A DNA stretch of 64,000 bases, taken from Moorella sp. E308F (GTDB lineage Bacteria; Bacillota; DSM-521; Neomoorellales; Neomoorellaceae). Where the stretch lies: assembly GCF_006538365.1 (NCBI RefSeq), contig NZ_BJKN01000003.1:62432-126431 (forward strand), read 5' to 3'. Positions 278 to 43,578 of this stretch are shown here, one piece after another (positions within the stretch are counted from its first letter, which is position 1; each line of letters opens with the position of its first letter). The notes under the pieces are model-generated. The model had not been told where the DNA came from, did no database searches, and worked only from the letters and a program-made list of their open reading frames with translations. The position numbers and the translations under genes are program-made.

Positions 278-291
278 CGGTGGAACCATGG

Positions 292-612
292 GGGCTGCCG
301 CAACGTTTACGCCCTTACGGGCTAGCGTAGCGGCAGCCCTATTATAAAGCAACAGCGGTAGGCAGCAGGAGCGGCTTTAAGCGCACCTGCTGCCTTGATT
401 TTAAGCCTTGCTAGCCTTCCGGCCGGCCCTGGATTATACCGCCGCCCTGGCCGGTCCGGCAAGGGTACGGCCTGCGGCATAAACGGCCTCCGCCCCACCC
501 TCCGGGCGGGTCCCCTCCATTTATTCCTCGGCCCGGCCCTGCGGGCCGCCCTTGCCTCCCGGCCGGGCGGCAAGCTTTTCTGTTAAGGCCGGAAGGCCAG
601 GGGCCGGAGGCC
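292..612 (+). repeat. Hairpin-rich repeat, copy A (candidate structured RNA)
   Basis: First of three related copies. Helices seen: P1 292-301/330-339 with an inner GCCC/GGGC hairpin; P2 361-369/386-394; a long-range helix 414-424/587-597; P4 441-447/565-571 and 449-454/559-564; P5 458-465/549-556; a hairpin 535-539/543-547; and a last GGCC hairpin 602-612. The inner part (about 466-534) differs from the other copies but keeps the closing helix with different bases. It ends 26 nt before a start codon, with GGGAGG between. No convincing gene lies within it. Confidence 0.8.
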
Positions 613-4218: not shown

Positions 4219-4404
4219 ATGGACACAAAAACTGGACCCGGGGGTACTGCAAAGGCTTTACAAGCACCGGGGGCCAAAGTATGCGCTGCCTGCCGGCATT
4301 ACTGGGGCAAAAAACGAGGGCATTGCGATATAGCAGGCAGGGGGGTCAACCCTTATGGGACCGCTTGCCGGTATTTTAAAGCGCTAGGGGAAAAAGGAAG
4401 TTAA
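4219..4404 (+). CDS. Small cysteine-cluster protein
   Basis: 61 residues, with four Cys spaced as C-x2-C-x10-C-x13-C (CAACRHY ... HCDIAG ... ACRYF), suggesting a small zinc-binding or zinc-ribbon protein. GGAGG precedes the ATG. Its stop codon lies three bases before the first paired base of repeat copy B. I do not recognise the family. Confidence 0.55.
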   Translation: MDTKTGPGGTAKALQAPGAKVCAACRHYWGKKRGHCDIAGRGVNPYGTACRYFKALGEKGS

Positions 4405-4407
4405 GGG

Positions 4408-4685
4408 GGCCGCCGCAACGTTTAAGCCCTTACGGGCTAACGTAGCGGCGGCCTTATTATAAAGGCAACAGCGGTGGGCAGCAGGAGCGCTTTTAAGCGC
4501 ACCTGCTGCCTTGAATTAAAGCCTCCAGGCCTTCCGGCCGTCCTTAGATTATACCGCCGCCCCCGGCCTATTGCCGTCAAGGCTGGCCCTGCGGGCCACC
4601 GCTAAAGCGGCGCTGGCGCGGCCTTGACGGCGGCCGGGGCGGCAAATTTTACAGTTAAGGCCGGAAGGCCAAGGGCCGAAAGGCC
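4408..4685 (+). repeat. Hairpin-rich repeat, copy B (candidate structured RNA)
   Basis: Best-folded copy. P1 4408-4416/4445-4453 with an inner AGCCC/GGGCT hairpin; P2 4477-4485/4502-4510; long-range helix 4528-4539/4659-4670 (12 perfect pairs); P4 4556-4568/4632-4643; P5 4573-4583/4621-4631 (11 perfect pairs) enclosing hairpins 4585-4589/4593-4597 and 4599-4603/4606-4610. A final GGCC-GAAA-GGCC hairpin (4674-4685) ends 23 nt before an ATG that has AAGGAGG. Relative to copy A, one P1 pair changes U-A to C-G. Confidence 0.85.
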
Positions 4686-9245: not shown

Positions 9246-9755
9246 ATGAACCGACAACCAAAACTCATAATAGTACCCTGCACACTTGATGAGGCTAACG
9301 CTTTTATCAAGCAATACCATCGTCATCATGGACCAGTTAAAGGACATAAATTTTCTATCGCAGTAGCTGATGAGAAAAACAATATCCGGGGTGTGGCCAT
9401 AATAGGGAGGCCAGTATCACGGGTACTTGATGATGGATGGACTTTGGGAGTTAGACGGCTGGCTACAGATGGATGTAAAAACGCTTGTTCCGCCCTTTAT
9501 GCAGCGGCATGGCGGGCAACACGGGCGATGGGATATCGGCGATTAGTAACATATATTCTTACTACTGAGCCGGGTACAAGTCTTCGCGCAGCTGGCTGGC
9601 GATGCGTGGGACAGGCTGGAGGCGGGAGCTGGAATCGCCCGAGCAGGCCCCGCGTAGACAAGCATCCGTTACAACAGAAGTTACGGTGGGAAGTATCTGA
9701 TGGTCCAATAGGACATTTACTTTTACCCGAGGAAGGCGGCGGGGTTAACGGATGA
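9246..9755 (+). CDS. XF1762-family protein (GNAT-like)
   Basis: 169 residues with the family's features: LIIVPCTLDEANAFIKQYHRHH near the N-terminus, GWTLGVRRLATDGCKNACSALY in the middle and MGYRRLVTYILTTEPGTSLR later. These proteins are common on phages and plasmids and are related to GNAT acyltransferases; their substrate is unknown. Its stop overlaps the relaxase start (ATGA). It appears to have been inserted between a duplicated relaxase start and the intact gene. Confidence 0.75.
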   Translation: MNRQPKLIIVPCTLDEANAFIKQYHRHHGPVKGHKFSIAVADEKNNIRGVAIIGRPVSRVLDDGWTLGVRRLATDGCKNACSALYAAAWRATRAMGYRRLVTYILTTEPGTSLRAAGWRCVGQAGGGSWNRPSRPRVDKHPLQQKLRWEVSDGPIGHLLLPEEGGGVNG

Positions 9756-12223
9756 GCAAAAGCGTGGTCATTGTCAACGTGGCCTATTACCAGCCCGGGA
9801 CGAAAAAGATGGGCAACAACTACAACCATATCCGGTATATCGCCACCAAACCTGAAGCTGACCGGGGCGACCCCGAAGCCTACCGTATCGGGGATGAAGA
9901 TTATCCCGTAGAAAGAGGTACCGCCGCCAGGCATGTCAAGTACGCGGCGGAGAGGCCCGGGAGTTCCGGCCTTTTCGGGCCGGAAGGAGAGCCGGTTCCC
10001 GGCTGGCAGGAAGTAGGGAGCAAGCTGGCACAGCACAACCTGCCGGTCTGGCGGGTGATCGTTTCTTTGCGGCAGGACGACGCAGAACGCCTGGGCCTGG
10101 TGGAGCGGGAAAAGTGGCAGGTCGCCATTGAGAACGGGGTCAACAGCGCCATCAAGGCCATGCACCTGGACCCGGACCATGCCCGTTGGGTGGCTGCCTT
10201 TCACAGGAAAGAAGGCCATCCCCACTGTCATATGGTCATCTGGGAGGAAGAACACAGCACTGCCAGGAGGCAGGGTTACCTGGAGCCCGGGGAAAGGAAA
10301 GGGGTTTTCCGGTCCTTCGCCCGGGAGGTTTTCCGCGAGGAAAGGGACCGCCTTACGGCCGAAAAGACGGCCATCAGGGACGCGATCAGAGAGCTAGCCG
10401 GCAACGACATAACGAAAGTCATGGAGTTTATGAGCGAGGTGAAGCAGGCCCGGCTGGAAGCCAGGGCGTTGATGGGAGCAAATCCGAAGATGCTGCCCGT
10501 CCTTACCGCTGGCAGGGAAGACGAGCTAGGTGGGAGGCTTTTGGACCTGGCGCGGCTAATGCCAGGGAAAGGGCGCATTGCCCTGGCTTACATGCCCGGA
10601 GAAGTTAAGGTGCGGGCCAGGGAAATAGCGGATTGGATCCTGAAACAGCCTGGGTTTAGCCAATCAGCGGGACGTTACCAGGAGCTGGCCCGGCAGTTAG
10701 CAAGCCATTATACCATGCAGCCAGGAGACCTGGACGACGCCGCCAGGAAGGCATACGACGATATACGTGACCGGGTGGCCCAGGTGGTGTTGAGAGGGGC
10801 GGCGCAGGTACAACAATTGGAGCAACAGGTTGAGCCTGCGAGCGAAGTTACCGGGGAATTGCCTTCAGAAGAAGGATTATCCAGAGGCAAGTACATACGG
10901 GTTATGCCGGAAAAAAGCGCTAAAAGGTTATGGCGAACTGCCTGCCGGGCCGTAGACAGGGCCTACTTGCAGGTGAAACCAGGCACGGGGATATTAAAAA
11001 CTAGTTTAGAGAAAGAGATAGAGCAAGAAATAGTTGCCAGGCTGCAAGAATTGGCTAATGCCATGCCGGAACCGCAAGGGAAGCCGGCGATTGCTTACCT
11101 GCCGGAAGAATTAAAGGAACAGGCAAGGGCTATCGCCGCCGGGCTTCTTAACCGGGAAGAATTGCAGGAAAGGTTGGCGGTAATTGCGGTCAGGAGCCCG
11201 GAAAAGGTTGGCCGCCTGCTGGAACACATAACTGAACAGGTAGTAGCCAGGGCCTATGACCTGATACCCCGGGAAATACCAGAAATAGATATGGTGCTCC
11301 ATCCCGGCAGGGGGTTAAAGGCTGCCTATTGTTTAATAAACGCCAGGGCAGATTGGGTAAAGGATGACAAGAGCGAGGCCTATTGGACGGTAGGCACCAT
11401 CTACCGGGCTATGGTCCGCCTGGGGGAGAAGGATATGGCCCGCGAGGCGGCAGCAAGGTTTGGCAAGGAAGCGGGATTGAGTGAAGGCGATATAGACCGG
11501 GTGATTAACAATGAAATCAAGCGCATGGAAGAGTTTGCCCGCAAGTGCGAGGAGCAGGGCGTGCCTATACCGGGGCATATAAGTAAAAGCGCCTGGCAGC
11601 GGCTAACAGAAAACCTGGGGCTGGAAGAACACGAACTCCTCTACCCCTGGTTTGGCATAAAGAGGCCCGGGCCGGAGGATAAACAAAAACAGGAGTTAAG
11701 GGAGCAATTAAACGTCCGCCTGGTAGAAGAGCGCATTACCCCGGCTTTAACTGCTATCAGGGAAGCCGGCGACAGGCCGGATGATTCCATGGAACTGCGC
11801 TGGACCCTGGTCACCATGACCTCAACCCTGAAAGCCCTGGGGGTGGATGAAGCCAGCCGGGAAGAAATACTACGCGGCTGGTGCCGGCGGGCCGGGGTGG
11901 AGATAACGGAAGCCAGGCTGCTGGATATCCTGGACCGGGCAACTATAGGCCAGGATGACCTCTGGCTGGGCAGGTGGAGCTGGGACAGGTTGATGGCCAA
12001 CCTGGGTATAGATGAGGCACCGCCGGTGCCCTGGGAAATAAATATCCCGCGGCCAATGGTGAGGAATACGGGCATAGCCCATGACGTCTGGAAGGCCGCC
12101 TGGCGGGCGCTGGAGCGGGAGCGCACCCGGGCCGAGGCCCAGGCGCAGCTTTTGGCGGAAAGGGACCTGGAGCGCCGCCGGCGAAAGGCCAGAGAAGAAG
12201 GAAAGGAGATGGAGAGGTTGTGA
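9752..12223 (+). CDS. MobL-like conjugative relaxase
   Basis: 823 residues. The N-terminal ~220 residues carry the relaxase domain: an opening VVIVNVAYYQPGTKK, then YNHIRYIATKPEA, and the metal-binding histidine cluster HPHCH (H156, H158, H160) within a pattern typical of Firmicute MobL/MobP-type relaxases. Relaxases nick oriT and stay linked to the transferred strand. The remaining ~600 residues are helical and charged, with no recognised helicase or primase motif. It overlaps the VirD4-type gene by four bases, forming a transfer operon. Confidence 0.85.
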   Translation: MSKSVVIVNVAYYQPGTKKMGNNYNHIRYIATKPEADRGDPEAYRIGDEDYPVERGTAARHVKYAAERPGSSGLFGPEGEPVPGWQEVGSKLAQHNLPVWRVIVSLRQDDAERLGLVEREKWQVAIENGVNSAIKAMHLDPDHARWVAAFHRKEGHPHCHMVIWEEEHSTARRQGYLEPGERKGVFRSFAREVFREERDRLTAEKTAIRDAIRELAGNDITKVMEFMSEVKQARLEARALMGANPKMLPVLTAGREDELGGRLLDLARLMPGKGRIALAYMPGEVKVRAREIADWILKQPGFSQSAGRYQELARQLASHYTMQPGDLDDAARKAYDDIRDRVAQVVLRGAAQVQQLEQQVEPASEVTGELPSEEGLSRGKYIRVMPEKSAKRLWRTACRAVDRAYLQVKPGTGILKTSLEKEIEQEIVARLQELANAMPEPQGKPAIAYLPEELKEQARAIAAGLLNREELQERLAVIAVRSPEKVGRLLEHITEQVVARAYDLIPREIPEIDMVLHPGRGLKAAYCLINARADWVKDDKSEAYWTVGTIYRAMVRLGEKDMAREAAARFGKEAGLSEGDIDRVINNEIKRMEEFARKCEEQGVPIPGHISKSAWQRLTENLGLEEHELLYPWFGIKRPGPEDKQKQELREQLNVRLVEERITPALTAIREAGDRPDDSMELRWTLVTMTSTLKALGVDEASREEILRGWCRRAGVEITEARLLDILDRATIGQDDLWLGRWSWDRLMANLGIDEAPPVPWEINIPRPMVRNTGIAHDVWKAAWRALERERTRAEAQAQLLAERDLERRRRKAREEGKEMERL

Positions 12224-14052
12224 AAATCAAATTCCGCCATTTCATTTTGTTGCTCCTAGTTTTATCGGATCTGCTACTTGCCCCGCTGGTGTTAAGGTTG
12301 CCTTTATTTCTCAAAGCCCAGGGCTTTAAGACCGGCCTGGAGGCCTGGAAGAAAGAAACCCTGGCCCACCCCCTGACCGGGCCGGCATTACTGGTGCAGG
12401 ATACAAAGATGCGTAACACCTGGATCTGGCTGCAGCCCGCTTTCGGCGCTACAGCCCTTTCCATTTTGTGGCCGGCCACCAGGCGGAAAAGTAAGGCAAA
12501 AGACGATATAGGCGGCCCGGAAGCGGCCGGCCAGGGCCAGCACGGCACGGCCCGGTGGCGGACGAGGAAAGAGATCGCCACCACTTTGACCCCCTGGGAT
12601 CTAACCGGCAAATCTCCGGGCGGCTTCGTGGTAGGGGCGGAAGAGGGGAACAGGTTTACTGCCTGGCTGGACGCCGGTGATACCCACTGTCTGGTCATCG
12701 GGGCCACCCGGAGCGGCAAGTCCCGGCGTATCATCATGCCCACCATCTGGACCCTGGCCAATGCCGGGCAATCCATGCTGGTCACCGACCCCAAGGGCGA
12801 GCTTTACGCCATGGCGGCGGGATACCTTAAGCGGCAGGGTTACCGGGTGGTGTTGATCGATTTAAGAGACCCCGGGCGGGGCAGCAGGTGGAACCCCCTG
12901 GACCCGGTTATCAAGGCCTTTCAGGAGGGGAATATCCCGGCCGCCAGCCAGGCGGCCTGGGATATAGGCAACATCATCACCCACCAGCAGCCCCACTACG
13001 GGGATAGCATCTGGCCCCAGGCCCAGGAGAGCCTGTCGGCGGCTTTAGCCCTGGCGGTGGCGGACCAGGCCCCCGAAGGAACCAAGCACCTGGCCAGTGC
13101 CTACGCCCTGCTGACGGAACTGGGCAGCGGCGGCGGAGAAAAGCTGGACGAATACTTCCGGCGTTTCCCCCAGGGCCACCCGGCCCGGGCGGCCTACGGC
13201 GTGGCGGCCCTGTCCGAGGACCGGCTGCGTTCCAGTATCTTTACCGGCACGGCAGCGCAGCTAAGGCTCTGGGCCGACCCGGAGGTGGCCTGGCTGACGG
13301 CAGTACAGGACCACGACATAACAATCCTCGGGCTGGAAAAAGCAGCGGTGTTCCTGGTGGTGCCCGACGAGAGGAGCACCAGGAACGTCCTGGCCACCCT
13401 GTACATTAGCCAGGTGTACCAGGCCCTGGTTGATACCGCCTATAGATGCGGCGGCAGGCTCCCGGTCCGGGTTAATTTCCTCCTGGACGAGATAGGAAAC
13501 CTACCTCCTGTACCTAATTTTGACCACCGGCTCACGGTTGCGGCCGGGCGGGGGATGCGTTTCCTCCTGGCTATCCAGGATTTAGCCCAATTGAAGGCCA
13601 AGTACAAAGAGGCGGCCGGGACCATTACCGGCAATTGCGCCACCTGGGTTTATTTATCTACGACCGATGAAAAGACTGCCGAGACAATCAGCAATATGAC
13701 GGGCAAATACACGGTGCGGACGGAAAGCTACTCCAGCCAGGTGCGGGCCGCCGATTATTCTTCCGGGACGACGGAAGCCTTAACCGGCAGGCCTTTGCTC
13801 TTGCCCGACGAGGTGCGGCGCTGGCCGAAGGGATGGGCTTTAATCCTCCAGGCCCGGGAAAACCCTGCCCGGCTGCCCCTGCCGGATCTTTCGGAGTGGC
13901 CCATAGCCGGCGAGTTAAAGCCGGTTGCTATAGATAAGCCTGATCAGGAGGTGATTGCAGCCCCGCCGGTGTGGCTGCCCGGGAAGCCGGCGGGGGGCGG
14001 GGAGGCCGTAGTAAAAGAAGACACCGGGCCAGATGTAATATCCAATCTTTGA
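12220..14052 (+). CDS. VirD4/TraG-type coupling ATPase
   Basis: 610 residues from a GTG start. Two N-terminal membrane segments (about 6-27 and 68-84) precede the ATPase. Walker A is GATRSGKS (161-168), followed by the typical SMLVTDPKGELY. Walker B is FLLDEIGNLPPVPNF with D423-E424. Coupling proteins bring the relaxase-DNA complex to the secretion channel. The C-terminal tail is proline-rich. It is translationally coupled to the relaxase gene. Confidence 0.93.
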   Translation: MKIKFRHFILLLLVLSDLLLAPLVLRLPLFLKAQGFKTGLEAWKKETLAHPLTGPALLVQDTKMRNTWIWLQPAFGATALSILWPATRRKSKAKDDIGGPEAAGQGQHGTARWRTRKEIATTLTPWDLTGKSPGGFVVGAEEGNRFTAWLDAGDTHCLVIGATRSGKSRRIIMPTIWTLANAGQSMLVTDPKGELYAMAAGYLKRQGYRVVLIDLRDPGRGSRWNPLDPVIKAFQEGNIPAASQAAWDIGNIITHQQPHYGDSIWPQAQESLSAALALAVADQAPEGTKHLASAYALLTELGSGGGEKLDEYFRRFPQGHPARAAYGVAALSEDRLRSSIFTGTAAQLRLWADPEVAWLTAVQDHDITILGLEKAAVFLVVPDERSTRNVLATLYISQVYQALVDTAYRCGGRLPVRVNFLLDEIGNLPPVPNFDHRLTVAAGRGMRFLLAIQDLAQLKAKYKEAAGTITGNCATWVYLSTTDEKTAETISNMTGKYTVRTESYSSQVRAADYSSGTTEALTGRPLLLPDEVRRWPKGWALILQARENPARLPLPDLSEWPIAGELKPVAIDKPDQEVIAAPPVWLPGKPAGGGEAVVKEDTGPDVISNL

Positions 14053-16002: not shown

Positions 16003-16632
16003 ATGGTTTTTAAATTATCGGGAAAAAAGAAACCTGCCAAACAGCAGCAGGTTGACCAGATTCAGGCGGCCCGGAAGGCGGTCCAGGACTGGCTGCCCTG
16101 GAAAGATATCGCCGGCGGGGTAATAACCAGGAAAGACGGGCAGGTGGTGGCCGTATTGAAGGTTGAGCCCTTTAACCTGGCCCTTAAATCGGAGAATGAG
16201 AAGATGCGCGTCATTACCGCTGTCCACGAAGCCCTGAACGGCCAGCGGGAGGCCTTCCAAATCCTTTCTCTGGGCCGACCGGTGGACCTGGACGCCTACC
16301 TGCGGGGCCTGCAGGACCTGGCCCGGGAAGCATCTAACCCGGTTCGGAAGAAGCTGCTGCAGGAGTATACCCGCTACGTGTCCACCTTGGTGGCCAGCGG
16401 GGAGGCGCTGGAGAGGCGGTATTATATCCTGCTCCCGGGGAAGGAACAAATAGAAGTCCTGCAAAGGGCGCACGAGCTGGCCGGCAACCTGGAACGGTCC
16501 GGCCTGAAGGTGAGGGTCTGCGGCGACCAGGAGATCATCGACCTGGTCTTTGTTTTTACCCATCCCGCCCAGGCGGCCTTCGAGCGGCCGCCAGCGCCGG
16601 GGCCGTATTTGCCGCCAATAGTTAATGGGTGA
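16003..16632 (+). CDS. TraC/TrsD-like N-terminal VirB4-associated protein
   Basis: 209 residues. The pattern VQDWLPWKDIAGGVITRKDGQVVAVLKVEPFNLALKS matches small proteins encoded just before VirB4 in Gram-positive conjugation modules, equivalent to a detached VirB4 N-terminal domain. It probably binds the VirB4 ATPase or the membrane platform. A VapBC cassette on the opposite strand separates it from virB4, and its 3' end overlaps the vapC 3' end by 11 bases. Confidence 0.65.
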   Translation: MVFKLSGKKKPAKQQQVDQIQAARKAVQDWLPWKDIAGGVITRKDGQVVAVLKVEPFNLALKSENEKMRVITAVHEALNGQREAFQILSLGRPVDLDAYLRGLQDLAREASNPVRKKLLQEYTRYVSTLVASGEALERRYYILLPGKEQIEVLQRAHELAGNLERSGLKVRVCGDQEIIDLVFVFTHPAQAAFERPPAPGPYLPPIVNG

Positions 16633-17355: not shown

Positions 17356-19158
17356 ATGAGTAGATCGAAAACGCAAACCCAACAAACATCTGTCTTATCT
17401 GGTCTTCTTGACGTTCTCTCCCCCCAGGCACTGGACTTCGGGGCCAGGCAGATAACTTTCGGCGAGCAACTGGCCAGGGCGATGGTCATAACCGACTATC
17501 CCCCGCGGGTAGGCCCGGCATGGCTGGCCCGGGTGGCCGGGATGCCGGGAGTGGCGGCTTCCATCCACGTGAATCCTACCGACCCTGCGAACCTGGTGCT
17601 TTCCATCAACAGGGCCATAGGCGAGTACACCGGGCGTTTGGAGCTGGGCGGCAACGCCCTGGTGATGCAGCGGACGGAACATGCCCTGAAGGACGCCCAG
17701 GAACTGCTTAAGAAAATCGACCAGGAACAGCAGCAGGTATTTTACGTGACCGTGGTCCTCCTGATCCTGGCCCATGATCAGGAAACCCTGGACCGGAGGA
17801 CCAGGCAGGTTGAAGCGGCCCTGGCCGCAGCCGGTATGCGTGGGAGGGCGGCGGTCTTCAGGCAGGAAGAGGGCCTGAAGGCGGCGGGGCCGTGGGCGGT
17901 ATTGCCTTCCGGCATTAAGGACGCAGGGGCCAGGAACATGCCGGCGGAGACGGTGGCCGCCAGTTTTCCTTTTACAGCAAGCGGCATTAACGACGGCAGC
18001 GGCGTGGTCCTGGGCCGCGACCGGGACGGGGGACTTGTGCTGGTGGACATCTGGCAGCGGGGCGGGGACAGGACGAACTCCAACTGGACCGTCCTGGCCA
18101 AGCCCGGGGCCGGCAAGTCCTTTGCGGTGAAGATGCTGATCTTGCGGGAACTGGCCCGGGGGGCCAGGGTGATCATCATCGACCCGGAACGGGAGTACCG
18201 GGAGATGTGCCGCCTCCTTAATGGCGCCTGGATCAACTGCGCCGGGGGCAAAGGGCGCATCAACCCCTTACAGGTGCGTCCTGTCCCTGTTGACGATGAA
18301 GAAGGGGAAGAAGATAAGGTAACCGCCAGGGGACCCCTGGCCCTGCACCTGCAGACCCTGCGGACCTTCTTTTCCCTATATCTCAGGGATTTAAGCGACC
18401 TGGAGAGGGCGGCATTAGAAGAAGCCCTGGTGGAAGTCTACCGCCAGGCCGGTGTCGGCTGGCAGACCGACCCGGCGGAAATAACTGCGGAGAATTGGCC
18501 CACGCCAAAAGAGCTTTACGCCTATGTCGCCGCCAAAGCGGGGGAAAAACCAGAAACCTACGGCCGCCTGGCGGTCCTGTTGCGCCGGGCGGCGGAAGGG
18601 GCCGACGCCTCTTTGTGGGCCGGGCCGACTACGGCGTCCGCCGATAACGATTTAATCGTCCTGGATGTCCACGACCTGCAGAACGCCGATGACGCCGTAA
18701 GGAGGGCGCAGTATTTCAACGTTTTAAGTTTTGCCTGGCACCAGATCGAGAAGGACCGCCAGGAGAGGACCCTGCTGGTGGTGGACGAGGCCTGGTTGCT
18801 GGTGGATCCTCAGACGCCCCAGGCCCTGGCCTTCTTAAGGGATACCTCGAAACGCATTAGAAAATACATGGGCGGCCTGGTGGTCATTTCCCAGAACGTA
18901 ATCGACTTCCTGGCCCCGGAGGTGGCCCGCCACGGCCAGGCGCTCCTGGACAACCCAACATACAAGCTCTTACTTGCCCAGGGAGAGAAAGACCTGGAGG
19001 CCATCACCACCCTGATGAACCTCTCGGAAGCGGAGCATGACCTTCTAGCCAGCGCCAAACGCGGGGAAGGCCTGCTGGTGGCAGGAACCCAGCGGGTGCA
19101 GGTAAGGATCGAGGCCGCGCCTTACGAGATGCCGTACCTTACGGGAGGCGGCCAGTGA
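17356..19158 (+). CDS. VirB4-type conjugation ATPase
   Basis: 600 residues. Walker A PGAGKS (K254) is followed by ARVIIIDPEREYREMC; Walker B LLVVDEAWLLVD has D477-E478; a late segment YMGGLVVISQNVIDFL is typical of VirB4/TraE/TrsE proteins. These power assembly and substrate passage in type IV secretion. It is shorter than full VirB4 because the N-terminal part seems to be encoded separately at 16003-16632. Its stop overlaps the ATG of the M23 peptidase gene. Confidence 0.92.
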   Translation: MSRSKTQTQQTSVLSGLLDVLSPQALDFGARQITFGEQLARAMVITDYPPRVGPAWLARVAGMPGVAASIHVNPTDPANLVLSINRAIGEYTGRLELGGNALVMQRTEHALKDAQELLKKIDQEQQQVFYVTVVLLILAHDQETLDRRTRQVEAALAAAGMRGRAAVFRQEEGLKAAGPWAVLPSGIKDAGARNMPAETVAASFPFTASGINDGSGVVLGRDRDGGLVLVDIWQRGGDRTNSNWTVLAKPGAGKSFAVKMLILRELARGARVIIIDPEREYREMCRLLNGAWINCAGGKGRINPLQVRPVPVDDEEGEEDKVTARGPLALHLQTLRTFFSLYLRDLSDLERAALEEALVEVYRQAGVGWQTDPAEITAENWPTPKELYAYVAAKAGEKPETYGRLAVLLRRAAEGADASLWAGPTTASADNDLIVLDVHDLQNADDAVRRAQYFNVLSFAWHQIEKDRQERTLLVVDEAWLLVDPQTPQALAFLRDTSKRIRKYMGGLVVISQNVIDFLAPEVARHGQALLDNPTYKLLLAQGEKDLEAITTLMNLSEAEHDLLASAKRGEGLLVAGTQRVQVRIEAAPYEMPYLTGGGQ

Positions 19159-22569: not shown

Positions 22570-22762
22570 GGAGGAATGGGGGATAGCAAATAGCAAGGGG
22601 ATAGAAGATCAGGCTGAGTAGCAGGCAATATTGATAAATTGGCAGGACTGGGGTAAAATGGGGCTGGGGAAGGTAGTATTAAACGGTTAAGGTCTTTCCT
22701 GGGAAGAGGTTAAAAAGAACTATTATGCGATAGTCAGAGATGAAGAGGCCGGGAGATAAAAT
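22570..22762 (+). other. Gene-free stretch after repeat copy C, possible gene remnant
   Basis: No gene with a start is visible. At 22691-22759 a frame without start reads LSWEEVKKNYYAIVRDEEAGR and stops, which looks like the tail of a lost protein. Confidence 0.35.
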
Positions 22763-23328: not shown

Positions 23329-23685
23329 CTAATGCATTTTACCACTGCCCGCCGGCCAGCAGAAAAGGCGCACATCTGGATCTATCTGAGGCGGGATTTC
23401 CTGGACAGTAGGCGGGGCATCGAATAATTTCAGAATCGCTGTTGCCATCATATCTGAGACCCTACCATAAGGTGCGGATACGCTTAACAGGTAGTATAGG
23501 CAGCCGTCCGGTTCTAGGGTTTTTGTAAAACAAACCTTCGTTTTTCCCGGGAACTCGCCCCAGTGCCTGGGAGCCGGGATTTCCATTTTGCTCGCGTCCA
23601 ATATGTATTCTTCAGCCAACTTTTTCATACGTTCCGCTGTTTCTATGGCAGCGACCGTTATAGGGCTATAACAACCCCTGCTCAT
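23329..23685 (-). CDS. Hypothetical protein downstream of element recA
   Basis: 118 residues. Helical N-terminus (ETAERMKKLAEEYILDASKM), then a segment with basic residues and four cysteines in total. No domain recognised. GGCGGTGAG precedes this ATG. It lies 16 bases downstream of recA and is likely in the same LexA-controlled transcript, so a role in DNA repair or transfer is possible. Confidence 0.55.
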   Translation of the reverse strand: MSRGCYSPITVAAIETAERMKKLAEEYILDASKMEIPAPRHWGEFPGKTKVCFTKTLEPDGCLYYLLSVSAPYGRVSDMMATAILKLFDAPPTVQEIPPQIDPDVRLFCWPAGSGKMH

Positions 23686-23701: not shown

Positions 23702-24721
23702 TTAAATAATCTTCCCCGGGGGTAATACCCCATTCAGGCTCTCTTTCAGCCTAGTTTCTATCTCCCGGGCAATGTCCGGGTGCTGCCGTAAAAATTCGCA
23801 GGTATTTTCAAGGCCTTGACCCAGGTGATCGCCCTGCCAGGAATACCAGGCACCGCTTTTAGCCACGATTCCTTTCTCAACTGCCATTTCCAATATGGCT
23901 CCTTCTTTGGATACCCCCTGGCCACAGAGCAAATCTAACTCGCATCCCCGGAACGGTGGCGCAACCTTGTTTTTTACAACCCGCGTTTTCATTTTGTGTC
24001 CTACAACTTCCGTCCCGTTTTTAATCTTATCCCCCCGCTGGACCTCAATCCTTACCGATGAATAAAACTTAAGCGCCCTGCCGCCGGGTGTAACGTAATC
24101 CGGTTTGCCGAAAGAGCTGCCGGTGTTTATCTTTTCCCTGATTTGATTGATAAAAATGACTATCGTTTTGGACTTGGAGACTATCCCGGAAAGCTTCCGC
24201 ATGGCCTGGGACATGAGCCTGGCCTGGAGCCCGACAATGGCATCCCCGAATTCCCCTTCTAATTCTTTTTTCGGCACCAGGGCGGCAACGGAATCTATCA
24301 CAATTATATCTACGGCAGAAGATTGGATAAGGGCTGAGGCTATTTCTAAAGCCTGCTCGCCGTATTCAGGCTGGCTGACCAGCAAATTCTCAATATCCAC
24401 CCCGAGGGTTTTGGCGTAATTGGGGTCAAAGGCGTGCTCGGCGTCGATCAGGACGGCGTTGCCGCCGCCTTTTTGGGCCTCGGTAACAGCGTGCAGGGCA
24501 ATGGTTGTCTTCCCTGATCCTTCTTCGCCGAAGATTTCGATTATGCGGCCCCTGGGCAAGCCGCCTACGCCCAGGGCCAGGTCCAGGGGGAGTATTCCTG
24601 TGGGCATGGCTTCGATGTTGAGGCGTTCCTGCTGGCCCAGGCGCATGATGGCGCCCTTACCATGCTTTTTTTCAATCTCTGCCAGGACCTTAGCGAGGGC
24701 TTGTTCACGGCCGGTTACCAT
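23702..24721 (-). CDS. recA: RecA recombinase, element-encoded
   Basis: 339 residues, near full length for RecA. Walker A is GEEGSGKTT (65-73), unlike the usual GPESSGKTT of host RecA, followed by [16 protein letters not shown] and the loop region [23 protein letters not shown]. RecA promotes strand exchange and LexA and repressor self-cleavage. The shortened C-terminus lacks the long acidic tail. AAGGAG precedes the start, and a promoter with a LexA box lies upstream. A second recA carried by the element is likely, since the host should have its own. Confidence 0.92.
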
Positions 24722-24776: not shown

Positions 24777-24806
24777 TTTATATCACCAAGAACAATTGTT
24801 CGTCAA
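24777..24806 (-). promoter_or_regulatory. recA promoter with LexA (SOS) box
   Basis: On the minus strand: -35 TTGACG, 18-base spacer, -10 TATAAA. The palindrome GAACAATTGTTC (24790-24801) fits the Gram-positive LexA/DinR consensus GAAC-N4-GTTC and fills the spacer, so LexA binding would block RNA polymerase. Confidence 0.8.
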
Positions 24807-24852
24807 TAGGTACTGCATTTTATCTCCGGGCAGATAGTAATTTGGTTCCTAA

Positions 24853-25281
24853 TCACTTTATAAACTTTATCTTTACCAGCTCCGGCGGCACCCCTAATTC
24901 AGCCGCAAATTCTTCTATGGTTTGTCCATACCTGGGCCGTTCTTCTGCCAACAATAATTCAGCGGTAAAAGCATTGGCGCGGTATTCTTCCGACCCGGTG
25001 ATTATGCAGGTGTTTTCCACCATAAAAAAGTAACCAAGGCCGGCGGGCGATAACTGGTCATGGCCGATTTCGTGGCCGACTATAACCCTTTGCTCTTCTC
25101 TGGGGAGGGAAGAGTTGATCCCGATGAGTTTGCGGCCCATAAACTCCAAGACCATGCCTTTTATTTTGCGGAATGGAAATGGGATGATTTTGATGCCCAG
25201 GCATTCAGCCAGCTTTAAGGGGTCCCTGGTGTTATATTTTTTCACCAGGTCATTTACAGCTTTGATGATGTATTCCTGCAT
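24853..25281 (-). CDS. ImmA/IrrE-type metallopeptidase
   Basis: 142 residues with the zinc motif HEIGH (70-74) and a later EEYRANAFTAELLLA segment typical of the family. In ICEBs1 and related elements ImmA cleaves the ImmR repressor after DNA damage, inducing excision and transfer. Here it lies four genes from a CI-like repressor and next to recA. HicAB lies between it and the repressor. Confidence 0.85.
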   Translation of the reverse strand: MQEYIIKAVNDLVKKYNTRDPLKLAECLGIKIIPFPFRKIKGMVLEFMGRKLIGINSSLPREEQRVIVGHEIGHDQLSPAGLGYFFMVENTCIITGSEEYRANAFTAELLLAEERPRYGQTIEEFAAELGVPPELVKIKFIK

Positions 25282-25338
25282 AAGCCGTCGCTCCCGGAAG
25301 CCCGGAATCGATATTTGTCGAAATATGGCTATATTAAT

Positions 25339-25369
25339 AAAGCTACTTCCATTCTCAGGAAGTAGCTTT
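25339..25369. terminator. Hairpin between hicA and the ImmA-like gene
   Basis: AAAGCTACTTCC / GGAAGTAGCTTT, 12 bp, 7-base loop. It likely ends the hicBA transcript on the minus strand. Confidence 0.65.
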
Positions 25370-25601
25370 AAAGCAAGTTTAGAAATTCTTCTATCGTTAA
25401 TCCCGCTTTATCCAATATGCTCTTTAAGGTTTTCGGTTTCAAGGTTTTGCCGGCATGAACAGGTATAATAACCTGGCGTGCCGGAATGGACCGATGAACC
25501 ATGTGATAGTGGCTACCTTTGATGTATTCAACAGTAAAACCTCCCCGCCTCAAGGCAGCCACGGCATCAACCCCGGTTATTCTTGGCAGGCGGGGACTCA
25601 T
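25368..25601 (-). CDS. hicA: HicA-family mRNA interferase toxin
   Basis: 77 residues with the HicA dsRBD-like pattern: LPRITGVDAVAALRRGGFTVEYIKGSHYHM, the conserved His in GSHYHM, and IPVHAGKTLKPKTLKSILDKAGL. HicA cleaves mRNA independently of the ribosome. It overlaps hicB by four bases, with hicB first in this operon. Confidence 0.9.
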   Translation of the reverse strand: MSPRLPRITGVDAVAALRRGGFTVEYIKGSHYHMVHRSIPARQVIIPVHAGKTLKPKTLKSILDKAGLTIEEFLNLL

Positions 25602-25939
25602 ACAGTAACCTCCACCATATCTTCGCCTTCATTATCGCTTTCAGGTACGGGTTGGCCGGTAATGATGAGATATTCAAGGTAGCAGGCAATTGCCTCACGG
25701 GCGTTTTCCAGGGCTTCTTCCCGGGTATCTCCTTCGGTGACCACGGGGGGTAGGGAAGGAACGGTTACTGTATACCCGGCAATATCACCTTCGCCGGCAG
25801 GTTCGTTCCAGTCTATTTTTATGTTATACCTGCGGGTTATTTTTTGATTGATTAAATTGGCCCTGGCAAAATTAAGCACCATGCGTAGCCGTTCCGGCGG
25901 CAGCTTCGAGAGTGTTTCTAAGTCTTTTTGAGGCAGCAT
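25598..25939 (-). CDS. hicB: HicB-family antitoxin
   Basis: 113 residues. The central part (GDIAGYTVTVPSLPPVVTEGDTREEALENAREAI) is the HicB partial RNase H-like fold that binds HicA. An unusual N-terminal extension of about 40 residues (QKDLETLSKLPPERLRMVLNF) precedes it. No C-terminal HTH is obvious, so DNA binding, if any, may reside elsewhere. Confidence 0.88.
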   Translation of the reverse strand: MLPQKDLETLSKLPPERLRMVLNFARANLINQKITRRYNIKIDWNEPAGEGDIAGYTVTVPSLPPVVTEGDTREEALENAREAIACYLEYLIITGQPVPESDNEGEDMVEVTV

Positions 25940-25965
25940 CTGCCCTCGCCCCTTTTTGTTTGGAT

Positions 25966-26421
25966 TTATTTACCTTTCTCTTTCTCTTTTTCTTTCTTCA
26001 GGGTTTTCCAGGCGAACTTTAGGAATTCTATTATATCCTCTTTATCCTCTTCGTCCAAGGGCGCCCCGTTGAACTGGACGTTGCTTTGTCTAAGGAATTC
26101 TTCCAATTCTATATTGCTGGGCGGTTCGTCTCGGTTATACCATTCTCTTGTGTCTATAGGTTTGGTCCGCTTTTCCTTTCCCTCTGGGGGGTATTTTTGA
26201 TCGTGAGTTTTTTCCTGAAGAGAACGGGGCTCATCTTCCAGACCAAGGAGATAGTCCACGGATACGTCTAATATTTCAGCCAAACGGCGAAATAGATCGG
26301 GGTTACCGCGCCTCTTCCCTTTTTCTATATCGTAATAATAAGGAGCCGAGATTCCTAGTTGTTCGGCTATTTTATGTCCTGACAAGCCCTTCTTTTCTCG
26401 GACCTCTCTAATCCTATTCAT
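25966..26421 (-). CDS. XRE-family repressor (CI/ImmR-like)
   Basis: 151 residues. An N-terminal HTH (REKKGLSGHKIAEQLGISAP, DIEKGKRRGNPDLFRRLAEIL) is followed by an acidic, lysine-ending tail that would be the protease target in ImmR-type systems. The start codon is preceded by AAAGGA at good distance. It is divergent from a Cro-sized HTH gene across an operator-rich region, so it is the likely master repressor of the element. Confidence 0.8.
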   Translation of the reverse strand: MNRIREVREKKGLSGHKIAEQLGISAPYYYDIEKGKRRGNPDLFRRLAEILDVSVDYLLGLEDEPRSLQEKTHDQKYPPEGKEKRTKPIDTREWYNRDEPPSNIELEEFLRQSNVQFNGAPLDEEDKEDIIEFLKFAWKTLKKEKEKEKGK

Positions 26422-26438
26422 AGTCATTATCCTTTCAG

Positions 26439-26585
26439 CTATTAGCTTATTTTAGTTTAAACCATAAAAAATAACAAAGCAATAAGCTAATAGAAGAATA
26501 AATGAGCTGTATGCTAGCTATTAGCTATTATGGTATGCTATAAGCTTATATTGCTGTTGAAAAAAGATAGCAAATAGCTTACACT
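26439..26585. promoter_or_regulatory. Operator region between divergent HTH genes, with rightward promoter
   Basis: Inverted copies CTATTAGCTTATT (26439-26451) and AATAAGCTAATAG (26481-26493), a related GCTAGCTATTAGCTATTA at 26513-26530, and the palindrome TATAAGCTTATA (26539-26550). The rightward promoter is TTGAAA (26557-26562), 17-base spacer, TACACT (26580-26585), overlapped by another partial copy, AGCAAATAGCTTA. This is the layout of a CI/Cro-type switch. Confidence 0.7.
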
Positions 26586-26611
26586 GGGTTTAAGATAGGA
26601 GGCAACCACAA

Positions 26612-26812
26612 ATGGAACATTTAAGAGATATGATTTCGGCCCGACTCAAGGAAAAACAAATATCGCTTAAACAACTTGCAAAGATGACAGGGTATACCCC
26701 TGCTTATATTTCCGATCTTCTCCGAAGTAAAAGAAGATTAAATGAGGACACGCTTTACCGTATTTGCTCTGCCTTAGACCTCGAAATAGCAGTGATACCT
26801 GGTAGAGATTAA
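26612..26812 (+). CDS. Small XRE/Cro-like DNA-binding protein
   Basis: 66 residues, one HTH domain only (ISLKQLAKMTGYTPAYISDLLRSKRRL, then DTLYRICSALDLEIAVI). AGGAGG precedes the ATG. It faces away from the 26421 repressor, so it resembles a Cro-type counter-regulator. Confidence 0.75.
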   Translation: MEHLRDMISARLKEKQISLKQLAKMTGYTPAYISDLLRSKRRLNEDTLYRICSALDLEIAVIPGRD

Positions 26813-26925: not shown

Positions 26926-27651
26926 GTGCCGGAGCAACCTTATATAGCCGTAGTATGCCCATCAGAAGATAAAATCCAGAGAAAAAACCGGACACCAGAC
27001 GCGGAACGGAAGTGGCGCAAACGACATGGGTTACCTCCACTGCGGGAACAAGGTAAACGCGGACCTGGCAAAGCTCCTAGGGCGGATCGCCAGGAGGTAG
27101 CTAGGGCCGTAGCCAGGGCGATAGTGAATAATCCCGTAGCTACCGCTAAAGTCCTGGCCGAACTTGCAGGCCTGATCAGGGAAGAAGCAGGCGAAAAGGA
27201 CCGAAAGGCTGCCGCTGAACGGGTGCGCCAGGCATTGAAGGACCTGCAGAAAATGCCAGGGCTGGCCGGAGATGAAGCCCTGGCTGAAGCTGTCCGCCAG
27301 GCATTTATGAAGCGCGAAGAAGAAAAAGAGAGGCGGCGCCAGGAACGGAAAAGAGAAGCAGCTGAAGTGAGTACCTCTCAATATGATGAAGATATCCAAT
27401 GGCTGATGGAACAGCAAGCCATACATGCCATCGAAATGAGTAAAGGGACAAAAATTGGAGGGATGGATTTACTTAAGTGGGCCGGGAGCGCCTATGAACT
27501 CGATGATAGCCGCAATAAGTACATATGCACCCTTGAGCCGACGAGTCGGCCGGCGGACCTGCCGTTAATGATATCCACACTGGGTAATATAACCGTTGCC
27601 AGCGGGTTCAAAAAAGGTAAGGGCGGCGGCAAAAAACCTATCCTTCCATAA
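26926..27651 (+). CDS. Hypothetical charged protein
   Basis: 241 residues from a GTG start with AGGGAGAGGA upstream. The middle is a long, highly charged helical stretch (about 85-150), likely coiled coil (KREEEKERRRQERKREAAE). The C-terminus is glycine- and lysine-rich. A terminator follows directly. A decayed copy of its first bases lies at 21072. I cannot name the family. Confidence 0.6.
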   Translation: MPEQPYIAVVCPSEDKIQRKNRTPDAERKWRKRHGLPPLREQGKRGPGKAPRADRQEVARAVARAIVNNPVATAKVLAELAGLIREEAGEKDRKAAAERVRQALKDLQKMPGLAGDEALAEAVRQAFMKREEEKERRRQERKREAAEVSTSQYDEDIQWLMEQQAIHAIEMSKGTKIGGMDLLKWAGSAYELDDSRNKYICTLEPTSRPADLPLMISTLGNITVASGFKKGKGGGKKPILP

Positions 27652-27739: not shown

Positions 27740-27919
27740 ATGGAAATAAAAAACCGTTTCGGCACCATAACGGTTCACATGCCATCGAGGCCTCCTACGC
27801 CCGAGGAGGAAAGAAGGTTATATGCAGTACTTGTAGAATGTTTAATTGAAAAGAAGCCAGTAGTACGGGAGGGCCAGAAAAGCAAGGAAAACCTTACAGA
27901 AAAGGCATTGGCGGTTTAG
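27740..27919 (+). CDS. Small protein at the right end of the element
   Basis: 59 residues opening with MEIKNRFGTITVHMPSRPPT and then a charged helix. TTGAGGTGG precedes the ATG. The stop codon lies at the junction with the prkA remnant. Proteins of this kind are, from memory and with low certainty, found near site-specific recombinase genes of clostridial elements; a role in excision is possible. Confidence 0.5.
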   Translation: MEIKNRFGTITVHMPSRPPTPEEERRLYAVLVECLIEKKPVVREGQKSKENLTEKALAV

Positions 27920-28972
27920 TGCTATGAGGTAACAGCCGACGAGGTAATAATTGCCCACACCAATGAAGCAGAATACCGGGCCTTTATCAGCAACCCCAAG
28001 AATGAAGCCCTGCAGTCAAGGATTATGGTTATTGCTATTCCCTATAACCTGAAGGTGCGGGATGAGGTAAAGATTTATCAAAAACTGATCCGCCAGAGCG
28101 ATATTACCGTCCACATTGCCCCCTTTGCCCTTCATGCGGCAGCCATTTTCTCCATCCTGTCACGCTTAAAGGAATCGAAAAAACAGGGTATGGACCTCTT
28201 GAAGAAGATGAAGCTTTATGACGGCGAGGATGTTGAGGGCTTTAAGCAAAAGGACGTCCTGGAACTCATGAATGAAGTCGAGGGGGAGGGGATGAGCGGT
28301 GTCGACCCCCGCTATGTCATCAACCGCATTTCCAGCGCCCTGATAACTGCCGACACCCGCTGCATCAATGCCCTGGATATCCTGAGGGCTTTGAAGGACG
28401 GCCTGGATCAGCATCCTTCCATAACTAAAGAAGATAAGGAACGCTTCATCAATTTCATTGCCATGGCGCGCCAGGAATACGACGAATACGCCAAAAAGGA
28501 AGTCCAGCGGGCCTTTGTTTACTCCTATGAAGAATCGGCCCGGGCCCTGTTTAACAACTACCTGGATAATGTGGAGGCCTATGTCAACAAGACCAAAGTC
28601 CGCGATCCCATTACCGATGAAGAGATGGATCCTGATGAAAAGCTCATGCGCTCTATTGAAGAACAAATCGGCGTTACTGAGAACGCCAAGAAGGCCTTCC
28701 GGGAAGAGATCCTCATCCGCCTTTCTTCCTATGCGCGTAAGGGCAAGACCTTTGACTATAACTCTCACGAGCGCCTGCGGGAGGCCATTGAGAAAAAGCT
28801 TTTTGCCGATATGAAGGATATTATCAAGATTACCACTTCCACCCGGACGCCGGACCCGGAGCAGTTGAAGCGCATTAACGCCGTTGTCGACCGCCTCATT
28901 TCCCAGCACGGCTATTGCCCGGTCTGCGCCAACGAGCTGTTGAAATACACCGGCAGCCTCTTAAACCGCTAG
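27920..28972 (+). pseudogene. prkA: prkA, 5'-truncated by element insertion
   Basis: The frame after the TAG at 27917 reads YEVTADEVIIAHTNEAEY and onward, matching PrkA from about residue 340 to its end (GSLLNR). The AAA+ ATPase half with the P-loop is absent. PrkA is a sporulation-associated serine kinase/AAA+ protein, normally about 630 residues, in an operon with yhbH and spoVR, which follow here. Homology extends about 30 codons upstream of the first in-frame ATG (28025), so this is a break and not a short gene. The missing half should lie beyond the left end of the window. Confidence 0.85.
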
Positions 28973-42728: not shown

Positions 42729-42819
42729 AATGGAATAACTTCTTTTGAGGCTTAAACGTATCTCTTATATGGGGTTTGGTAAAAAATCTAAGGCGGTTAC
42801 CACCAAAGGAGCAATTACC

Positions 42820-43578
42820 ATGGAAATAGGTTCTACCATCAGGCATTTCCGTGAAGAAAGGGGCTATACCCTGGACGACCTGGCGGGCAGGGCGGGGATT
42901 TCCCCCTCATATTTAAGTGAAATCGAAAGAGGTCATAAGCGCCCCTCCCTCAAAACCCTGGATAAAATTTGCACTGCCCTCAATATTCCCCGGGAAAACC
43001 TTATACCCGCCGAAAACAGTGTCGGTCTGGGAGATAAAATCCGGATAGTGCGCCAGGAAAAAGGTCTTTCCCTCAAGGACCTGAGCGCAAAAACAGGTAT
43101 TTCTTTCACTTATTTAAGCGAAATTGAAAGGGGTGTCCTGCATCCCGCCGCCGATACCTTGAGTAAGATTGCGTCCGCCCTGGAAGTCCCCCTCTCCCTG
43201 CTGGTAAGCCATACAGAAAACTGGATCGGGAAAAAACTTAAAGATGTCCGCGAATCCCTAGGGCTTACCCAGAGCGCCCTGGCAGCCCAGGCCGGCCTCT
43301 CGCCGGCAATGATCGGGCAGATTGAAGCAGGAAAAGTGCAGCCCTCCCTTAATACTATAGAAAAAATAGCCAGAGCCCTGGGAATTTCCCCTTGCTATCT
43401 GCTTATAGCCCGTGACCAGCTGGAAGAAATGCTGGCTTCCATGGGCCCGGATTTAAGGGAACTGCTGCTGAACGAGAATGTGCAGGCAGTACTCAGGCAG
43501 ATCTGTTATTTAAATGAAAAACAACTGCGCTTTCTCTTGAAATTTATAGAGGTATTTAAACAGGCCCAGCTGGAGTAA
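42820..43578 (+). CDS. Regulator with three tandem XRE/HTH domains
   Basis: 252 residues. Three complete HTH_3 domains in a row at about 4-60, 68-125 and 138-195, each with the pattern LxxxAGISPSYLSEIERG or close (SYLSEIERGHKRPSL, TYLSEIERGVLHPAA, AMIGQIEAGKVQPSL). A helical C-terminus of about 50 residues follows, with no ligand domain. AAAGGAG precedes the ATG. Position before the sulfur operon makes it the likely local regulator. Confidence 0.85.
   Translation: MEIGSTIRHFREERGYTLDDLAGRAGISPSYLSEIERGHKRPSLKTLDKICTALNIPRENLIPAENSVGLGDKIRIVRQEKGLSLKDLSAKTGISFTYLSEIERGVLHPAADTLSKIASALEVPLSLLVSHTENWIGKKLKDVRESLGLTQSALAAQAGLSPAMIGQIEAGKVQPSLNTIEKIARALGISPCYLLIARDQLEEMLASMGPDLRELLLNENVQAVLRQICYLNEKQLRFLLKFIEVFKQAQLE

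What the first reader, a model, noticed from the sequence alone, without database searches (positions are those of the whole stretch)
24777..26812. Element carries its own LexA-controlled RecA beside an ImmA/ImmR-like switch
recA with a variant Walker A (GEEGSGKTT) sits behind a LexA box placed between -35 and -10. Next come an ImmA-like protease, HicAB, a CI/ImmR-like repressor and a divergent Cro-like gene with clustered operators. In ICEBs1 RecA and ImmA drive induction; here the element brings its own RecA, which may let it control its damage response independently of the host.
Basis: partly seen in the sequence, partly recalled or inferred. Interest (0 to 1): 0.62.

Follow-up and report, generated by a model that had tools for sequence, protein, structure and literature searches.

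The report
Mobile element with damage-inducible RecA
A conjugative element of the heat-loving bacterium Moorella, lodged inside a gene linked to spore formation, carries its own altered copy of the DNA-repair protein RecA under the cell's DNA-damage switch and next to the protease that should wake the element, which makes it a natural test of how such elements sense DNA damage.

Summary
The recA gene (23702-24721, minus) lies just outside the stated interval. It is one of three recA-type genes in the genome, so the main refuter fails. A LexA box fills its promoter and is conserved in all three elements that carry this recA (this genome, Moorella stamsii, M. mulderi). Host recA has no such box in 8 Moorella genomes. 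The element is a 48.5-kb integrative and conjugative element (ICE) with a serine integrase, MobP3 relaxase, VirD4 and VirB4. It splits prkA, next to a second element 102 nt away. The split prkA rejoins to an intact frame in three species.

The switch is modular. The repressor C-terminal domain, ImmA and RecA stay 90-97% identical across the three elements, while the repressor's DNA-binding domain, operators and Cro gene are replaced. HicBA is a variable insert. RecA forms its own clade with P67E, at a residue known to tune co-protease function, and a longer DNA-binding loop.

Most likely LexA-induced RecA feeds ImmA-mediated derepression and excision; this is inferred, not shown. Independence from the host is not supported, because the trigger is host LexA. 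Verdict: a new variant of a known kind, worth testing.

The parts
23702..24721 (-). element-borne recA (339 aa), Walker [10 protein letters not shown] (P67E, S69G in E. coli numbering), DNA-binding loop L2 three residues longer than host RecA
   Evidence: purifying selection dN/dS about 0.12-0.19
24777..24806 (-). recA promoter: -35 TTGACG (24806-24801), 18-nt spacer, -10 TATAAA (24782-24777)
   Evidence: sequence; conserved in two other species; not listed by the consensus scan, which requires T at the last base of the -10
24790..24801 (.). LexA box GAACAATTGTTC
   Evidence: conserved in M. stamsii (GAACAAATGTTC) and M. mulderi (GAACAATTGTTC)
24853..25281 (-). ImmA-like metalloprotease (M78/IrrE family, HEIGH)
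   Evidence: PF06114 42 bits; about 35% identical over its length to phi105 and other phage ImmA-type proteases
25368..25601 (-). HicA toxin, accessory insert between repressor and immA
   Evidence: PF07927; missing at this place in G001 and G002, present in G009
25598..25939 (-). HicB antitoxin
   Evidence: PF15919
25966..26175 (-). constant C-terminal domain of the ImmR-like repressor
   Evidence: 95% and 93% DNA identity to G001 and G002, similarity stops at 26175; alignment A2; relatives in 30 of 398 Bacillota
26176..26427 (-). variable N-terminal helix-turn-helix of the repressor, replaced in the other elements
26437..26581 (.). clustered operators (AGCTATTAGCTTA-like) in the divergent promoter region
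   Evidence: unrelated repeats in the other elements
26612..26812 (+). Cro-like HTH gene, replaced in the other elements
26926..27651 (+). conserved gene downstream of cro; its C-terminal part is shared by all related elements; candidate recombination directionality factor (inferred)
   Evidence: no family match
27919..27943 (.). attR of the ICE: arm GTGCTATGAGGTAACA plus core GCCGACGAG, then prkA 3' part
28025..28972 (+). 3' part of interrupted prkA (homology from 27935); the 5' part lies 59 kb upstream at C3:30580-31341
9752..12223 (+). MobP3/MobL relaxase
   Evidence: NF041499 284 bits, cut-off 150
12220..14052 (+). VirD4-type coupling protein
   Evidence: PF02534 201 bits
17356..19158 (+). 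VirB4-type ATPase, C-terminal part

Best explanation
[quoted passage not shown] A replaceable repressor/Cro immunity cassette sits in front of a constant induction cassette: repressor C-terminal domain, ImmA protease, LexA-controlled RecA paralog. Proposed working: DNA damage makes host RecA filaments; host LexA is inactivated; the element's recA is switched on, while host recA lacks a LexA box; the element RecA on ssDNA raises the signal that activates the neighbouring ImmA; ImmA cleaves the repressor in or near its constant C-terminal domain; the divergent cro-orf241 promoter opens; a directionality factor (orf241 is a candidate) lets the serine integrase excise the element; prkA is rejoined and the circle can transfer. 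Shown: gene identities, the box and its conservation, the modular swap, the attachment sites, an open prkA frame after joining. Inferred: LexA binding, damage induction, RecA acting on ImmA, repressor cleavage, excision.
For: Three recA-bearing elements keep repressor C-terminal domain, ImmA (96-97%) and RecA (90-94%) together although HTH, operators and Cro are replaced. The LexA box is in all three recA promoters, in 0 of 8 Moorella host recA upstream regions with the same scan (a distant relative, G057, scores as a positive control), and absent from the 6.5-kb host recA locus. In M. mulderi the prkA-borne relative carries a different ImmA/repressor module and no recA. RecA is under purifying selection and keeps the Walker A lysine, the DAEH glutamate, Walker B aspartate, FINQ glutamine and the KNK lysines. 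P67 is the residue whose mutation separates co-protease from recombination function (titles of Konola et al. 1995 and 1998, reference list of PMC3164682). ImmA and RecA drive ICEBs1 induction (PMC11841131). The ICE and its ends are defined by two integrase attP palindromes, seven empty sites, MobP3, VirD4 and VirB4.
Against: Only three examples, all Moorella, so co-inheritance could be common descent; recA, immA and integrase show similar low divergence (dS 0.21-0.28). The repressor-domain/ImmA pair is common in Bacillota and no recA turned up beside it elsewhere, so ImmA does not need a linked RecA. In pneumococcal prophages RecA can repress ImmA-type induction, and ssDNA alone may activate such proteases (PMC12637031). 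GEEGSGKTT recurs in phage UvsX-type recombinases, which fits a recombination role just as well.
Confidence: 0.45

Rival explanations
1. The element RecA is a recombination protein, in the style of phage UvsX-type recombinases, made on damage or after transfer to repair, circularise or recombine element DNA. Its position beside ImmA reflects shared control, not signalling.
For: Walker [10 protein letters not shown] is shared by several UvsX-like phage recombinases found by pattern and by chromosomal second RecAs of G014 and G017 that have no ImmA within the fetched flanks. ICE transfer genes are strongly mosaic between species (dS 0.5-1.2), as expected with much recombination.
Against: It does not explain why this recA stays with one ImmA type through immunity swaps.
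Confidence: 0.3
2. The element RecA dampens or redirects the host SOS response: mixed filaments with altered P67 and L2 lower LexA cleavage while the element replicates, as ICEBs1 RamA/RamT or PsiB do by other means.
For: P67 and L2 are sites where E. coli mutations change co-protease activity (reference titles in PMC3164682). ICEs are known to modulate host SOS (PMC11841131). Position R243 of E. coli is Lys here.
Against: Being LexA-repressed, it would act late and as feedback; no direct evidence.
Confidence: 0.13
3. recA is ordinary repair cargo that benefits the host (inducible RecA in a host whose own recA is not LexA-controlled) and hitchhikes beside immA by chance.
For: Bacterial-type recA genes are common on plasmids (1,295 plasmid records match); Deinococcus deserti carries damage-induced plasmid recA genes (PMC2669436).
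Against: Conserved adjacency in three elements at two or more insertion sites; a sequence lineage separate from the host recA genes.
Confidence: 0.12

Closest known systems
ICEBs1 ImmR/ImmA switch (Bacillus subtilis); also TnSmu1 immRA
   Same: HTH repressor followed by an M78 metalloprotease, divergent controlled promoter, ICE context
   Different: Element brings its own LexA-box RecA; serine rather than tyrosine integrase; sits in prkA rather than a tRNA gene; swappable HTH on a constant repressor tail
Host RecA (TIGR02012 equivalog)
   Same: Same family, full length, core catalytic motifs kept
   Different: 61-63% identical to host RecA, separate clade (100/99), P67E/S69G, L2 loop +3 residues, own LexA box
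Phage UvsX-like recombinases
   Same: GEEGSGKTT Walker A occurs there too
   Different: Element RecA is a bacterial-type RecA with RecA_C domain, far over the RecA model cut-off
Plasmid-borne recA genes (e.g. Deinococcus deserti; many PLSDB plasmids)
   Same: Extra recA on a mobile replicon, damage-inducible in D. deserti (PMC2669436)
   Different: There a radiation-response motif lies upstream; here a LexA box plus a linked ImmA switch on an ICE
Sporulation gene-intervening elements (skin in sigK, SPbeta in spsM, gin in gerE, vrin in spoVR)
   Same: Serine-recombinase element splits a sporulation-linked gene and leaves an intact frame after joining; vrin also uses spoVR
   Different: Target prkA not found in the papers searched; two elements 102 nt apart in one gene; one is a full ICE; sporulation-timed excision untested

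Membership tests
RecA (bacterial recombinase A) | Match to RecA equivalog model over cut-off | tested here: met
   TIGR02012 485 bits, cut-off 325; PF00154 and PF21096
RecA (bacterial recombinase A) | Catalytic and DNA-binding motifs (Walker A Lys, DAEH, VIDS, FINQ, KNK) | tested here: met
   Alignments
RecA (bacterial recombinase A) | Strand exchange and LexA co-protease activity | not testable with these tools
   P67E, longer L2 and R243K make altered co-protease activity plausible
LexA regulon member | LexA box overlapping the promoter, conserved | tested here: met
LexA regulon member | LexA binding and damage induction | not testable with these tools
   Host has two lexA genes with similar boxes
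ImmR/ImmA (ICEBs1-type) switch | HTH repressor gene upstream of an M78 HEXXH protease, divergent operators | tested here: met
ImmR/ImmA (ICEBs1-type) switch | ImmA cleaves the repressor; RecA needed for induction | not testable with these tools
   Repressor tail is co-conserved with ImmA
ICEBs1 family of elements | Tyrosine integrase in a tRNA gene, ICEBs1-type transfer genes | tested here: not met
   Serine integrase, site in prkA, MobP3 relaxase
Integrative and conjugative element | Integrase with att sites, relaxase, coupling protein, VirB4 | tested here: met
   VirB4 is in two reading frames (16003-16632 and 17356-19158), also in a relative
Integrative and conjugative element | Excision and transfer | not testable with these tools
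   none
Sporulation gene-intervening element | Splits a sporulation gene; frame intact after joining; empty sites in relatives | tested here: met
Sporulation gene-intervening element | Integrase or directionality factor under mother-cell sigma factors | tested here: inconclusive
   simple sigma-E/K pattern scan found no consensus match
Sporulation gene-intervening element | Excision during sporulation | not testable with these tools
   none

The most novel reading that the evidence does not exclude
The element carries a dedicated RecA that is the cognate activator of its ImmA: a RecA altered at P67 and L2, supplied through the host LexA switch, forms with ImmA and the constant repressor tail a transferable damage-sensing unit onto which different immunity specificities are swapped. 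Its firing both mobilises the ICE and rejoins prkA.
Probability: 0.25. Interest if true: 0.82.

Novelty: new variant of a known kind. Interest (0 to 1): 0.6.

Why it matters
How RecA activates ImmA-type proteases is unresolved; published results range from RecA-dependent activation to RecA repression and ssDNA-only activation (PMC12637031, PMC10233336). A RecA paralog that stays next to one ImmA type through repeated immunity swaps offers a natural cognate pair, with a natural change at the very residue known to separate RecA's co-protease from its recombination activity. It also shows an element supplying the LexA-inducible RecA that its host lacks, and it sits in a split sporulation-linked gene not found as a target in the papers searched.

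Tried and rejected
Only-recA-in-genome: rejected. recA as a recent copy of host recA: rejected by tree. HicAB as core part: rejected. The gene behind recA (orf134, 23329-23685) as a conserved RecA partner: rejected, it is broken in M. stamsii and has homologs elsewhere in Moorella chromosomes. recA as a general partner of this repressor/ImmA type: not found in 28 relatives' flanks. Vertical inheritance of the split prkA: not provable, element genes are mosaic and some are slightly less diverged than host genes. The exact LexA pattern is not enriched genome-wide over the reversed control (22 against 24 sites), so the case rests on position and conservation. Weak promoter-consensus hits were ignored. 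No solved structure matched ImmA by sequence. The IMG/VR recA hits I aligned keep Pro at position 67; the plasmid hits were at most about 62% identical, no closer than host RecAs. Structure prediction was not run: the folds of the key proteins were clear from sequence.

Full report
WHAT IS THERE. The window is G000:C3:62432-126431 of a 3.06-Mb genome. The genome has three RecA-type proteins: host RecA at C2:271348 (GPESSGKTT, followed by recX and rny), the element RecA in the window, and a phage-type RecA on contig C4 among phage-like replication genes. The element recA is at 23702-24721 minus. Its promoter TTGACG-18-TATAAA contains the perfect LexA box GAACAATTGTTC. Upstream, in the same orientation, lie an M78 ImmA-like protease, hicA, hicB and an HTH repressor; a Cro-like HTH gene diverges across a region with clustered repeats.

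IS THE BOX REAL. About one exact 12-mer is expected by chance in a window this size (0.65 expected), and the pattern is not enriched over the genome. But it lies inside the recA promoter (11 of 20,000 shuffles) and is kept in the same place in M. stamsii and M. mulderi, where the promoter reads TTGACGAACAAATGTTCCTGGTGGTATAAA and TTGATGAACAATTGTTCTTGGTGATATAAA. The two host lexA genes have similar upstream sites (CGAACGGTTGTTTA, CAAACACTTGTTCT). Host recA shows no such site in 8 of 8 Moorella genomes, while the same scan finds one at recA of the distant relative G057. In these strains the LexA-inducible recA is therefore, by sequence, the element's.

THE ELEMENT. prkA is cut: nucleotides 1-762 of the frame lie at C3:30580-31341, 760-864 at C3:41738-41842, and 856-1890 from window 27935. 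Between the first two lies a 10.4-kb element (A) with a serine integrase; between the last two lies the ICE (B, about 48.5 kb) with its serine integrase at C3:41887-43449 next to the left junction and recA near the right junction. Circularised ends give attP-like palindromes for both elements. Seven other Moorella genomes have uncut prkA and none of them has a second bacterial recA. B carries a MobP3 relaxase, VirD4, TrbL-like protein, VirB4 in two frames, an M23 hydrolase and a Tad-type pilus set.

THE SWITCH IS MODULAR. M. stamsii has a related B element with recA in prkA. M. mulderi has a recA-bearing one on another contig and, in prkA, a relative with a different repressor and a longer ImmA and no recA. 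Among the three recA-bearing elements the repressor C-terminal domain (DNA 93-95%), ImmA (96-97%) and RecA (90-94%) are constant, whereas from window 26176 to about 26854 (HTH, operators, cro) no DNA similarity is left. Operator-like repeats differ accordingly: AGCTATTAGCTTA here, TTACGN4CGTAA in M. mulderi. HicBA is missing from that place in M. stamsii and M. mulderi but present in G009, whose element carries a fourth HTH, a truncated ImmA and no recA. The repressor tail occurs in 30 of 398 sampled Bacillota; at least 12 of 28 such loci outside the three elements have an M78 gene close by and none showed a recA in the short flanks.

THE RecA. The five RecAs with GEEGSGKTT (G000, G001, G002, and second RecAs of G014 and G017) form one clade (100/99) apart from all host RecAs. 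The Walker A pattern was found in 4 of 398 Bacillota genomes sampled and 5 of 22 genomes of the class. Pro67 is kept in all 55 other RecAs examined. In these five it is Glu, and loop L2 is longer, by three residues in the element RecA. Mutations at Pro67 in E. coli separate co-protease from recombination function and change LexA/UmuD preference (titles cited in PMC3164682; the papers themselves were not read). The same Walker A recurs in phage UvsX-like proteins. Selection is purifying (dN/dS 0.12-0.19), so the protein works at something.

HOW IT MOST LIKELY WORKS. Host LexA holds element recA down. Damage makes host RecA filaments, LexA falls, element RecA accumulates, ImmA is activated, the repressor is cut near its constant tail, the cro-orf241 promoter opens and the integrase excises the element with a directionality factor. 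Every step after 'LexA box' is inferred from ICEBs1 and related systems. Since published work shows RecA activating or repressing ImmA-type induction and suggests ssDNA alone can activate related proteases, the RecA-ImmA step is the uncertain one.

SPORULATION GENE. In all three species the prkA pieces join to a 630-codon frame without stops (1890 nt), and dN/dS between interrupted copies (0.01-0.04) lies in the range seen between intact ones (0.02-0.04). PrkA matters for sporulation in Bacillus anthracis (PMC13001217). In G009 the neighbouring spoVR is split (residues 1-77 and 75-484, 70 kb apart) by another serine-recombinase element with the same kind of repressor module; spoVR is a known target (vrin), prkA was not found as one in the library searched. 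This fits gene-intervening elements that must leave for sporulation, but recent or repeated insertion is not excluded because element genes are mosaic.

VERDICT. Real, not ordinary cargo by context, and a new variant of ImmR/ImmA-type ICE control. The mechanistic role of RecA is the open and testable part.

Noticed in passing
C3:30580-31341, C3:41738-41842, window 27935-28972: prkA is interrupted twice, by two serine-integrase elements inserted 102 nt apart; the three pieces rejoin to an intact frame in this genome and in M. mulderi, two pieces in M. stamsii.
   Followed up: yes
L223 4424-4654 and L224 810-2045 (G009:C1:441,924 and 512,310): In another Moorella (G009) spoVR, in the same operon as prkA, is split by a 70-kb element carrying the same kind of repressor, HicBA and a truncated ImmA.
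   Followed up: partly
L009 3342-13738 (C3:31342-41738): Element A in prkA looks partly decayed: truncated ImmA gene, IS3-type transposase, S24-type repressor, intact serine integrase.
   Followed up: partly
C3:52746-52918, window 290-452, 4401-4685, 22570-22674: A dispersed repeat of about 165 bp (78-83% identical to one stretch of M. stamsii) recurs at module boundaries of the ICE and may help modules recombine.
   Followed up: no
L009/L010 (C3:43729-51541): The ICE carries a Tad/Flp-type pilus gene set (CpaB, CpaE, CpaF, TadB, TadC-like) beside the conjugation genes.
   Followed up: no
window 16003-16632 and 17356-19158: VirB4 is encoded in two separate reading frames with about 700 bases between; the same layout is seen in a relative (G010).
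   Followed up: no
G028:C31:13259-17887: In a distant relative recA matches come in several separate pieces over 4.6 kb, as if interrupted by inteins or introns.
   Followed up: no
L011 (C4:68001-88000): A phage-like 103-kb contig with DNA polymerase, primase, anaerobic nucleotide reductase and a divergent RecA (GPPKSGKTT).
   Followed up: partly
C2:308589 and C2:381242: The host has two full-length lexA genes, each with a LexA-box-like site upstream.
   Followed up: partly
window 42745-43578: A host-side protein with three tandem XRE-type HTH domains.
   Followed up: no
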